Assembly: GCF_014218355.1 (NCBI RefSeq)
Contig: NZ_AP023368.1
Span: 3,352,001-3,416,000, forward strand
Direction of reading: 5' to 3'
DNA from: Anaerocolumna chitinilytica
GTDB taxonomy: Bacteria; Bacillota; Clostridia; Lachnospirales; Lachnospiraceae
DNA length: 64,000 nt
Shown: in pieces, positions 38,874 through 41,280 of the stretch
Position numbering within the stretch: the first letter of the stretch is position 1
Layout of the letters: every line of letters starts with the position of its first letter
Notes under the pieces: model-generated
What the model saw: the letters and a program-made list of their open reading frames with translations, nothing else
Told to the model about the DNA's origin: nothing
Databases searched by the model: none
Program-made: the position numbers and the translations under genes

Positions 38874-40389
38874 AAAGTTTATAACTGCCCTTGCCTTCAT
38901 CTTTTACGGAATAAAGAGCTTTATCTGCACAATTAATTAATTCCGTATAGGTTGCGCCATCTTCCGGATATACAGAAATACCGATACTTCCGGATATGTA
39001 TACCGCCTGGTCTTCCACCTCATAGGCGGTACTAAGGGCTTCTCTAAGCAGATTGGCCTTGGTGATAATTCCATCAAGGCTATCAATGTTCCCGACGAAT
39101 ACGATGAATTCATCCCCTCCGATACGACCGATAATCTCTCCGAAGAAAATACTTTTAATTTTGTCCATAATATATACTAATATATTGTCCCCGGTTAAAT
39201 GTCCGTAATTATCATTGACATGTTTAAAATCGTCAATATCTATCATCATTAAAATATGCTTGGAATTTCGATTGCGTTTTAAGTATTCATCAATAATTTC
39301 TTTTGTTGTAACTTTATTATACACACCTGTCAGCAAATCTCTCTTAGCCTTATATTCCAGTTTTTGCAGTTCCTTTTTATGCAGGTCAATATTTACCACT
39401 TTACCAATGACACTGATTGGTTCCTTATTCTCATCATAGATAGTCTTTCCCCTGATATGACACCAGACATACTCATTATTTGCATTTTTTATACGAAACT
39501 CCGCTTCCATCATTTCTTTTCCGCTTTTAAGAGTTCTTGCAAAAAGTTTGAGGTCCTGGCAGTCCTCCGGATGAACCATATTCTTATTGTACAGCTCTAC
39601 CACTGAAAAATCTTCAATTACAGGTGTTCGTCCATAAACTTCCGTATATTTGTCCGCAAATTTCATAACATCTTTGTCAACCTTATATTCAAAAAGAATA
39701 TCATTGGATATCTCGGCAGCAATTCGATATCTTTCCTCCTCCAGGGAAAGCTTATTCTGCATTTCTTTAAAATTAGTAATGTTTAATAAAACCGCAGAAA
39801 AGGCCTTTTCACCTTCGCGGGTTAAGGTAAAATTGCCATCCAAAAGTACATTAATAATATCACCGCTCCGGGTAATCATTTTAACTTCTATCTGCCGATA
39901 GGAGCCGTTTACAAACTGCTCTTTCAGCACTTTTATTTTCTCCTGATCCTCATCACAAACAAAGGATAAAAAACAATTATCATATTCTGTTTCAAACTCA
40001 TACCTTTTATAACCAAAAATCTCATAAAACTTTGGATTAGCATACGTGACCTGATATCCTGGTTCCAGCAAAATATTAAGGAATCCTGTATGAACACTTT
40101 TGGTAATATAGGACAATTCAGCGGTAGCTTTTCTAACCTGATGATTACAGATTATACTGGAAACAAAACTTACAGTCAAAAAAAGCAACAGAATAAGAAT
40201 CAATACCACTCCTCCATCTGTTTTTACCACTTCATATAGAGATTGATCATTATTAATTACCAGATTGAAAATCAATAAAACACCTGTCAATGCAGCCAAG
40301 CCAAGAGAAATTCCTATGGTGTTATTTAATCTGGGAATTCCTTTTTTCAGAATATAATCGGTTTTATTTTCTTGCATATTCCTCATCAC
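38866..40389 (-). CDS. PAS-containing diguanylate cyclase
   Basis: 507 residues from GTG at 40389; ATGs at 40386 and 40377 are alternatives. Two membrane helices (about 23-45 and 60-82), two PAS-type domains (about 93-210 and 215-340), and a GGDEF domain with GGDEF at 424-428. It makes c-di-GMP from two GTP. The RxxD inhibitory site expected five residues upstream reads FFGE, so product inhibition by that site appears absent. A c-di-GMP riboswitch precedes the gene, giving another route for feedback. Confidence 0.92.
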   Translation of the reverse strand: MMRNMQENKTDYILKKGIPRLNNTIGISLGLAALTGVLLIFNLVINNDQSLYEVVKTDGGVVLILILLLFLTVSFVSSIICNHQVRKATAELSYITKSVHTGFLNILLEPGYQVTYANPKFYEIFGYKRYEFETEYDNCFLSFVCDEDQEKIKVLKEQFVNGSYRQIEVKMITRSGDIINVLLDGNFTLTREGEKAFSAVLLNITNFKEMQNKLSLEEERYRIAAEISNDILFEYKVDKDVMKFADKYTEVYGRTPVIEDFSVVELYNKNMVHPEDCQDLKLFARTLKSGKEMMEAEFRIKNANNEYVWCHIRGKTIYDENKEPISVIGKVVNIDLHKKELQKLEYKAKRDLLTGVYNKVTTKEIIDEYLKRNRNSKHILMMIDIDDFKHVNDNYGHLTGDNILVYIMDKIKSIFFGEIIGRIGGDEFIVFVGNIDSLDGIITKANLLREALSTAYEVEDQAVYISGSIGISVYPEDGATYTELINCADKALYSVKDEGKGSYKLFT

Positions 40390-40472
40390 CCTTCCAGATT
40401 TGTTTGATAAACTACTGCTTACCTAATACCCAAATCTGTTTCTTTCACAATACGAAATAGAAGGATACACAC

Positions 40473-40501
40473 AAAAAAAGCTCGTTCTTAAAATCGAGCT
40501 T
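40473..40501 (-). terminator. Terminator in the riboswitch expression platform
   Basis: AAGCTCG (40478-40484) pairs with CGAGCTT (40495-40501), followed on the minus strand by seven T residues. It lies between the aptamer and the cyclase start. A larger imperfect dyad (40452-40467 with 40513-40525, ACGAAATAG... arms) encloses it. Confidence 0.8.
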
Positions 40502-40525
40502 AGACTGAAATATATCCTATTTCGT

Positions 40526-40613
40526 GCAACTGGCTGTCATATCTGCATACAGATTTAGACCCTAAGCTTTGCGTCCTCATCTTTCAATGAGTTTGCCCCT
40601 ATAAACATAGGTC
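40526..40613 (-). ncRNA. c-di-GMP-I (GEMM) riboswitch aptamer
   Basis: The minus strand reads GGGGCAAAC, TGAAAG loop, GAGGACGCAAAGC, GGTCTAAA and GACAGCCAGTTGC in order. These are the conserved blocks of the GEMM-I aptamer: the GGGCAAAC and GGACGCAAAGC core, GNRA-type loop and the second-stem sequence. A terminator hairpin follows 25 nt later and then the diguanylate cyclase gene. Whether c-di-GMP turns the gene on or off is not settled by the sequence, but a terminator suggests transcriptional control. Confidence 0.93.
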
Positions 40614-40619
40614 CATTGT

Positions 40620-40648
40620 ACTATAATTCGTGGAATTTTGCAATTCAA
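40620..40648 (-). promoter_or_regulatory. Promoter of the riboswitch-cyclase transcript
   Basis: Minus strand TTGAAT (40643-40648), 17-bp spacer, TATAGT (40620-40625). The start near 40613 begins just before the aptamer. An unrelated 8-bp palindrome TTTCCGTT/AACGGAAA lies at 40693-40712. Confidence 0.65.
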
Positions 40649-40758: not shown

Positions 40759-41280
40759 TTATTTCCAATTTTGAAAAATCACCGTAGCTTCGGTTAGATA
40801 ATCTTTGCTGATTGTAATCGAAGTGTCATCTGCTGTTTTATATTCATCGGTAATCGGAACCGGATTACAGCCGCCTTTTACAACTTCTACCTGATCCATT
40901 GAGAAATGATTTCCGCAGTTCTGGCACACCAGCTCGTCTCCCTCTTGCTTGTAATAGCCTTTTCCGGAAGAATAGCAGACCTGGCAGGTATTAAAGGCTG
41001 TCCTAATTGTACCATCCGGAGCTTTTACCGCCAGCACTTCCAATTCAGTACCGTCAATCTTTGCAGGAAAGAACTTAGCTGTTTCCGTAATGTCCTTAAC
41101 CGGTATAACAATATCACTGTCTGTTACTTTAGCTGCCCTTAATTTATCCGAATCTCCTCCGCTTCCGGCTGGTTTTCCAAAGCTATTGAAGCCAAAGGCA
41201 ATTGCCAGTATTGCGAGAACAGAGATTGTAAGAATTAAGTATCTCGTCGTATTTGATTTTTTATTCTGTTTGTTCGTCAT
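40759..41280 (-). CDS. DUF2318 membrane-anchored, cysteine-rich protein
   Basis: 173 residues. One N-terminal helix (about 13-31), then a soluble domain with CQVC (Cys99, Cys102), CQNC (Cys119, Cys122) and a further Cys138 in GGCNPVPI. This is the DUF2318 layout, taken as a metal or Fe-S binding protein outside the membrane, sometimes tied to iron or metal uptake. No partner permease is nearby. Function is not established. Confidence 0.85.
   Translation of the reverse strand: MTNKQNKKSNTTRYLILTISVLAILAIAFGFNSFGKPAGSGGDSDKLRAAKVTDSDIVIPVKDITETAKFFPAKIDGTELEVLAVKAPDGTIRTAFNTCQVCYSSGKGYYKQEGDELVCQNCGNHFSMDQVEVVKGGCNPVPITDEYKTADDTSITISKDYLTEATVIFQNWK

What the first reader, a model, noticed from the sequence alone, without database searches (positions are those of the whole stretch)
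40452..40613. c-di-GMP riboswitch controlling a diguanylate cyclase that lacks the RxxD inhibition site
Seen: near-consensus GEMM-I aptamer, terminator with T7 and a gene with GGDEF but FFGE where RxxD should be. An enclosing dyad (40452-40467 with 40513-40525) could form an antiterminator or second switch state. Inference: product feedback has moved from the enzyme to its mRNA.
Basis: partly seen in the sequence, partly recalled or inferred. Interest (0 to 1): 0.7.

Follow-up and report, generated by a model that had tools for sequence, protein, structure and literature searches.

The report
c-di-GMP riboswitch controlling a c-di-GMP synthase
A bacterium related to Anaerocolumna appears to use an RNA switch that senses the signal molecule c-di-GMP to shut off the gene of an enzyme that makes c-di-GMP, an example of a known but uncommon kind of feedback; the missing inhibition site on the enzyme is not special.

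Summary
A class I c-di-GMP (GEMM-I) aptamer lies on the minus strand at 40607-40522 (Rfam 75.6 bits, cut-off 35), followed by an intrinsic terminator and a PAS-PAS-GGDEF gene with FFGE where RxxD would be. The unit is conserved: 9 of 10 testable same-genus orthologs carry the aptamer.

One part of the proposed switch fails. The enclosing dyad is real here, but shuffles support it in only 2 of 10 leaders, window included. A better antiterminator pairs the aptamer's P3 5' strand (AGCUUAGG) with the terminator's 5' arm (UCUAAGCU). It keeps 78 of 80 pairs in 10 leaders and dominates the modelled prefix in 9 of 10. This predicts an OFF switch, that is, negative feedback.

'Feedback moved from enzyme to mRNA' is not supported as a rule. 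RxxD was not found in 19 of 25 GGDEF domains of this genome. Elsewhere 2 of 5 riboswitch-linked plain cyclases keep RxxD, and an ortholog without the riboswitch also lacks it. A review already places GEMM upstream of cyclase genes; others call such control rare. Verdict: new member of a known kind.

The parts
40615..40643 (-). promoter-like site TTGCAA-17-TACAAT; start of transcription inferred near 40608-40610
   Evidence: TTGCA and TACAAT invariant in the alignment of 10 leaders
40522..40607 (-). GEMM-I (c-di-GMP-I) aptamer
   Evidence: Rfam RF01051, 75.6 bits
40561..40568 (-). AGCUUAGG: 5' strand of aptamer helix P3, which is also the 5' strand of the proposed antiterminator
   Evidence: pairs with 40504-40497; 78 of 80 pairs kept over 10 leaders; prefix folding
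40497..40504 (-). UCUAAGCU: 3' strand of the proposed antiterminator, overlapping the 5' arm of the terminator
40473..40501 (-). intrinsic terminator: stem 40501-40495 / 40484-40478, T-run 40479-40473
   Evidence: hairpin with T-run in 8 of the 9 orthologous leaders by reading (no T-run in L038)
40513..40525 (-). 5' arm of the enclosing dyad
40452..40467 (-). 3' arm of the enclosing dyad (3-nt bulge); not conserved in the closest relatives L034-L036
38866..40389 (-). diguanylate cyclase gene, 507 codons from GTG (a start at ATG 40377 behind AGGGTGAT is more likely, inferred); two membrane-like segments (by eye), PAS, PAS, GGDEF
39136..39147 (-). FFGE in place of the RxxD inhibition site
39106..39120 (-). 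GGDEF active-site motif

Best explanation
This is a transcription-terminating c-di-GMP-I riboswitch that most likely works as an OFF switch on a PAS-containing, probably membrane-bound diguanylate cyclase. At low c-di-GMP the P3 5' strand of the unliganded aptamer (40568-40561) pairs with the 5' arm of the terminator (40504-40497) as soon as that arm leaves the polymerase. This antiterminator holds long enough for the polymerase to pass the T-run, and the cyclase is made. At high c-di-GMP the ligand locks P3 into the aptamer, the terminator arm stays free, the terminator forms and the cyclase mRNA is cut short. The enzyme thus represses its own synthesis through its product. Shown: aptamer, terminator, gene, conservation, and mutually exclusive pairings in the model. 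Inferred: ligand binding, OFF direction, kinetic control, enzyme activity.
For: Aptamer at 75.6 bits. Eleven of 14 other same-genus genomes have a close ortholog (45-66% identity). The aptamer is upstream of 9 of the 10 that can be tested; the eleventh, L041, is cut off at its contig end. Antiterminator pairs are kept in 78 of 80 cells over 10 leaders. The three outer pairs (U40502, C40503, U40504 in the window) lie outside the terminator stem: one is invariant, one is G-C in 5 and G-U in 5 leaders, one is kept in 9 of 10. In the prefix that ends before the terminator's 3' arm the antiterminator has probability 0.72-0.99 in 9 of 10 leaders, with P3 base pairing at most 0.07. Shuffled linkers reach the observed value in 0-2 of 60 trials in those 9 leaders. 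Once the 3' arm is included the terminator takes over (0.99-1.00 in 8 of 10), as described for Cd1, an OFF switch whose antiterminator is transient (PMC9262584, passages). GGDEF domain at 126 bits with an intact GGDEF motif.
Against: Nothing here shows ligand binding or termination. The P3 5' strand is invariant in the 10 leaders, so no two-sided covariation can support the antiterminator. L034-L036 are near copies in this region, so the 10 leaders are fewer independent lineages. With single-base shuffles of the window's terminator arm against the whole aptamer, 71 of 200 did as well (rank 0.355). In L042 the antiterminator has a mismatch, its modelled probability is 0.00, and 39 of 60 shuffles reach that. 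In L042 and L044 my script cut the second-stage prefix inside the loop, so that stage says nothing for them. L038 has no T-run. The window's full-length minimum-energy fold puts the terminator inside the enclosing helix. A conserved aptamer need not regulate: Bc1 binds c-di-GMP but downstream expression did not change (PMC11218506, passages).
Confidence: 0.72

Rival explanations
1. ON switch: ligand binding prevents the terminator, so c-di-GMP raises cyclase expression (positive feedback).
For: Related GEMM-I switches can be ON: Bc3-5 in Bacillus thuringiensis (PMC4759541, passages) and pilM (PMC9262584, passages). At equilibrium the terminator wins without ligand in the window (P = 1.00).
Against: Here aptamer and terminator do not overlap in sequence (aptamer ends at 40522, terminator stem starts at 40501), so both can form together, as in Cd1 (OFF) and unlike pilM (ON) according to PMC9262584. 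The conserved competing pairing uses the P3 strand against the terminator arm.
Confidence: 0.15
2. The enclosing dyad (40525-40513 with 40467-40452) is the regulatory alternative structure.
For: Strong in this sequence: z = -5.9, 0 of 200 shuffles as good; linker-to-downstream duplex -15.9 kcal/mol, 4 of 300 shuffles as good.
Against: It forms only after the polymerase has passed the terminator and it contains the terminator. Of the 9 orthologous leaders only L038 shows a comparable match (0 of 300); the other 8 give 48-216 of 300 shuffles as good.
Confidence: 0.06
3. The enzyme lost its I-site because the riboswitch took over product feedback.
For: All 11 same-genus loci that show the motif, window included, lack RxxD, and 9 of 10 testable orthologs have the riboswitch.
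Against: Absence of RxxD is the commoner state: 19 of 25 domains in this genome, 2 without readable motif, and 19 of the 30 best-scoring domains of 7 other genomes, 3 without readable motif. Riboswitch-linked plain cyclases elsewhere keep it in 2 of 5 cases (L194, L199 yes; L109, L186, L195 no). Ortholog L043 has neither riboswitch nor RxxD. The genus is probably one evolutionary event, so it carries little statistical weight.
Confidence: 0.1

Closest known systems
Cd1 c-di-GMP-I riboswitch (Clostridioides difficile flgB operon)
   Same: GEMM-I aptamer, intrinsic terminator that can coexist with the aptamer, transient antiterminator, OFF switch (PMC9262584, passages)
   Different: Controls flagellar genes. 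Its antiterminator uses strand A, which pairs with the aptamer's 5' strand (read by me as the P1 3' strand); here the P3 5' strand is used. OFF is reported for Cd1 and only predicted here.
GEMM riboswitches upstream of DGC and PDE genes (Sudarsan 2008, as cited in PMC3971182)
   Same: Riboswitch in front of an enzyme gene of c-di-GMP turnover; stated in a review (passage)
   Different: The passage names no such locus and gives no mechanism for these cases.
L109, L186, L195, L194, L199 (other Lachnospiraceae genomes, this work)
   Same: GEMM-I directly upstream of a plain GGDEF gene
   Different: Other protein architectures: PAS-GGDEF (L109), GGDEF with no other Pfam match (L186, L195), response regulator-GGDEF (L194), GGDEF with a below-cut-off Cache match (L199). 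L194 and L199 have RxxD.
Bc3-5 triple-tandem riboswitch (Bacillus thuringiensis)
   Same: GEMM-I aptamers with terminators (PMC4759541, passages)
   Different: Reported as ON switches; there the terminator competes with parts of P1 and P3 of the aptamer.

Membership tests
c-di-GMP-I (GEMM-I) riboswitch, RF01051 | covariance-model score over the curated cut-off, full length | tested here: met
   75.6 bits against 35, positions 1-87 of 87
c-di-GMP-I (GEMM-I) riboswitch, RF01051 | GAAA tetraloop on P2 and conserved GACGCAAAGC and GUUGC junction strands | tested here: met
   visible in the alignment; invariant in the 10 aligned leaders
c-di-GMP-I (GEMM-I) riboswitch, RF01051 | G (not A) at the ligand-contacting position (Vc2 G20), which selects c-di-GMP over cGAMP | tested here: inconclusive
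   G at 40597; mapping to G20 rests on Vc2 numbering recalled by me. The G/A rule is in PMC9481103 (passage); G20 and C92 in PMC9049102 (passages)
c-di-GMP-I (GEMM-I) riboswitch, RF01051 | binds c-di-GMP and changes expression | not testable with these tools
   needs in-line probing and transcription assays
transcriptional OFF riboswitch | terminator plus mutually exclusive antiterminator that uses aptamer sequence | tested here: met
   (model and conservation, not experiment); L042 fails
diguanylate cyclase (GGDEF) | GGDEF domain with intact active-site motif | tested here: met
   PF00990 126.1 bits; GGDEF
diguanylate cyclase (GGDEF) | Asp (not Hypr Ser) at the base-selecting position | tested here: inconclusive
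   GHLTGD has Asp; mapping to GacA Ser348 (PMC8835794, passages) is recalled
diguanylate cyclase (GGDEF) | makes c-di-GMP | not testable with these tools
   needs an enzyme assay
I-site regulated diguanylate cyclase | RxxD five residues before GGDEF | tested here: not met
   FFGE
feedback moved from enzyme to mRNA (proposed class) | riboswitch-linked cyclases lack RxxD more often than others | tested here: not met
   no excess seen, small numbers: linked plain cyclases with RxxD 2 of 6, window counted; other domains 6 of 25 and 11 of 30, two of the 30 being themselves near a GEMM

The most novel reading that the evidence does not exclude
In this genus one cyclase family has no allosteric product inhibition at all and is held in check only by its product acting on its mRNA, through an antiterminator that steals the P3 5' strand of the aptamer rather than P1. 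It would be a purely transcriptional c-di-GMP homeostat: slow, and able to overshoot.
Probability: 0.25. Interest if true: 0.5.

Novelty: new member of a known kind. Interest (0 to 1): 0.32.

Why it matters
[quoted passage not shown] A conserved case with one aptamer directly before one cyclase gene would be a clean place to measure autoregulation of a second-messenger enzyme by its own product at the RNA level. The survey also gives a rough frequency: a GGDEF gene lies directly downstream of 11 of 206 other GEMM-I sites examined.

Tried and rejected
Enclosing dyad as antiterminator: rejected on order of transcription and lack of conservation.

Single-locus duplex ranking of terminator arms against aptamers over 127 loci (terminators found in 91): not decisive, and the window's own duplex was unremarkable there (71 of 200 shuffles as good).

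Is the P3-5' antiterminator unique to this locus? No. In a prefix-folding survey of 207 GEMM-I loci (window included) a terminator was found for 135; one could not be classified. Of 134 classified, 14 (window included) use the P3 5' strand most, 55 the 3' strands, 35 P1/P2, 3 the middle of P3, and 27 show fewer than 3 expected pairs. These predictions had no shuffle control.

I-site statistics: first within this genome, then in the 30 best-scoring of the domains of 7 genomes, then riboswitch-linked genes in 200 fetched regions plus 6 own sites. The 200 regions came from the top of two E-value-ranked, capped lists, leaving out many sites near contig ends and one member of some tandem pairs, and a few more to fit the caps; they are not a random sample. 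GGDEF genes were found with a profile built from this genome's 25 domains. Of 11 directly linked GGDEF genes, 5 are plain cyclases, 3 carry EAL, 2 carry HD_5 (taken as HD-GYP), and 1 (L163) has a degenerate GGDEF and was left out of I-site counts. Five more regions (L125, L197, L201, L206, L305) have a GGDEF gene further downstream on the same strand, as second to fifth gene; of these L201 has RxxD, L125 and L305 do not, L197 and L206 showed no motif; they were not counted as directly linked. For L109, L195, L199, L354 and L357 I took short ORFs printed before the GGDEF gene (opposite strand, or 66 aa) as spurious.

Literature: seven full-text searches. No listing or passage that I saw names this locus; the lists were capped. 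In one search, 535 papers held two of the three terms and none of the 10 listed holds the word Anaerocolumna. The library lacks most subscription papers, Weinberg 2007 among them (PMC1950547 by recall; not held).

Full report
Observation. On the minus strand the order is: promoter-like TTGCAA-17-TACAAT (40643-40615), GEMM-I aptamer (40607-40522; 75.6 bits), terminator (40501-40473), then a gene of 507 codons from GTG (40389-38866) with PAS_9, PAS_3 and GGDEF domains. The stretch before GGDEF reads FFGEIIGRI, with no RxxD. An upstream FtrD-like gene (40759-41280) is separated from the leader by a terminator-like site of its own (40746-40720), and no promoter-like site was found between the riboswitch terminator and the gene on this strand. 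The gene therefore most likely depends on read-through of this terminator (inference).

Where it is. The genome is one 5.62-Mb contig with 7 GEMM-I sites, the window's included, and 25 GGDEF domains. The relatives of the protein at 48-66% identity found among named genomes are Anaerocolumna species, Clostridium sp. KNHs205 and uncultured Clostridiales; two distant GGDEF matches (24-31%) were also returned. Anaerocolumna belongs to Lachnospiraceae, class Clostridia. Of 14 other same-genus genomes searched, 11 have a close ortholog; the 3 without are 63-81% complete. Nine of the 11 have the aptamer directly upstream (L034-L040, L042, L044). One (L041, apparently the same record as L068) is cut at its contig end and cannot be tested. 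One (L043) has none within its locus, and neither has L070, apparently the same Anaerocolumna aminovalerica locus with 3 kb upstream, even at a permissive threshold.

Mechanism. Ten leaders align from promoter to T-run. The P3 5' strand AGCUUAGG is invariant. The terminator 5' arm with three bases before it reads UCUAAGCU, UUUAAGCU, GCUAAGCU or UUUAUGCU, and 78 of 80 pair cells are kept. The three outer positions are not part of the terminator stem, so their conservation is not explained by the terminator alone. Folding the transcript up to the terminator loop gives the antiterminator a probability of 0.72-0.99 in 9 of 10 leaders with P3 opened; in L042 it is 0.00. Dinucleotide-shuffled linkers reach the observed value in 0, 1, 1, 2, 0, 0, 0, 0 and 1 of 60 trials for these nine, and in 39 of 60 for L042. 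When the terminator's 3' arm is added, the terminator dominates in 8 of 10; in L042 and L044 the script cut the prefix too early for this stage. This resembles what is described for Cd1, where the transient antiterminator refolds to terminator with time and, at high ligand, the ligand-bound state is populated before the antiterminator folds (PMC9262584, passages). I therefore predict an OFF switch under kinetic control. Against it: the duplex by itself is unremarkable (71 of 200 arm shuffles as good), and L034-L036 are near copies.

The enclosing dyad. It is real in this sequence (z = -5.9 for the 78-nt stretch) and is part of the full-length minimum-energy fold. But it encloses the terminator and its 3' arm comes after the T-run. 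Duplex strength between linker and downstream sequence is within chance in 8 of 10 leaders; only the window (4 of 300) and L038 (0 of 300) stand out. It may affect the read-through mRNA in this lineage; I do not give it a role in the decision.

Has feedback moved? RxxD is present in 6 of 25 GGDEF domains of this genome, two of the rest having no readable motif, and in 11 of the 30 best-scoring domains of seven other genomes of the family, three having no readable motif. Among 206 other GEMM-I sites (120 from the family, 80 from the class, 6 from this genome), 11 have a GGDEF gene directly downstream: five plain cyclases (L109, L186, L195, L194, L199), three GGDEF-EAL (L132, L326, L329), two GGDEF-HD_5 (L354, L357) (Pfam) and one degenerate (L163). 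RxxD is kept in L194 and L199 of the plain cyclases and in L132, L329, L354 and L357 of the others. Loss of RxxD is thus neither specific to, nor required by, riboswitch control. The numbers are small and not corrected for relatedness (L186 with L195, and L354 with L357, look like homologs).

What is known. [quoted passage not shown] Class I switches in C. difficile are described as OFF switches (PMC11477304), while Bacillus ones can be ON (PMC4759541, passages). I read passages, not whole papers. The element is a new member of a known kind; its predicted antiterminator type is a minority form (14 of 134 classified terminators, window included), not unique to it.

Limits. No experiment was possible. 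Ligand identity, OFF direction, enzyme activity and product inhibition are inferred. Motif conventions such as Vc2 G20 and the I-site spacing are recalled.

Noticed in passing
L044 (G006), apparently the same locus as L071 (Anaerocolumna sedimenticola): The cyclase ortholog lies in two separate open frames of 297 and 259 codons although the aptamer upstream is intact; either decay or a sequencing error.
   Followed up: no
L038 (G007), leader after the aptamer: The attenuator hairpin is a long perfect dyad (ATATGCAATTTAAGCTCTGTG with its complement) without a T-run, so this copy may not terminate as the others do.
   Followed up: no
window 40395-40438 (-): An 8-bp stem CAGATTTG/CAAATCTG (40438-40431 with 40402-40395) sits directly before the likely ribosome-binding site of the cyclase.
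   Followed up: no
L002, L004 and L006 (this genome): Three of the genome's GEMM-I sites are listed under the Rfam variant c-di-GMP-I-GGC (RF03167); L002, and L004 after a 135-codon ORF, precede ORFs that look like 3-oxoacyl-ACP synthases by eye.
   Followed up: no
L007 and L001 (this genome): Other GEMM-I sites precede a methyl-accepting chemotaxis protein and a secreted repeat protein, by eye.
   Followed up: no
L354, L357: GEMM-I directly upstream of PAS-GGDEF-HD_5 proteins with a DGDEF motif and RxxD in class Clostridia: a riboswitch on a likely phosphodiesterase.
   Followed up: partly
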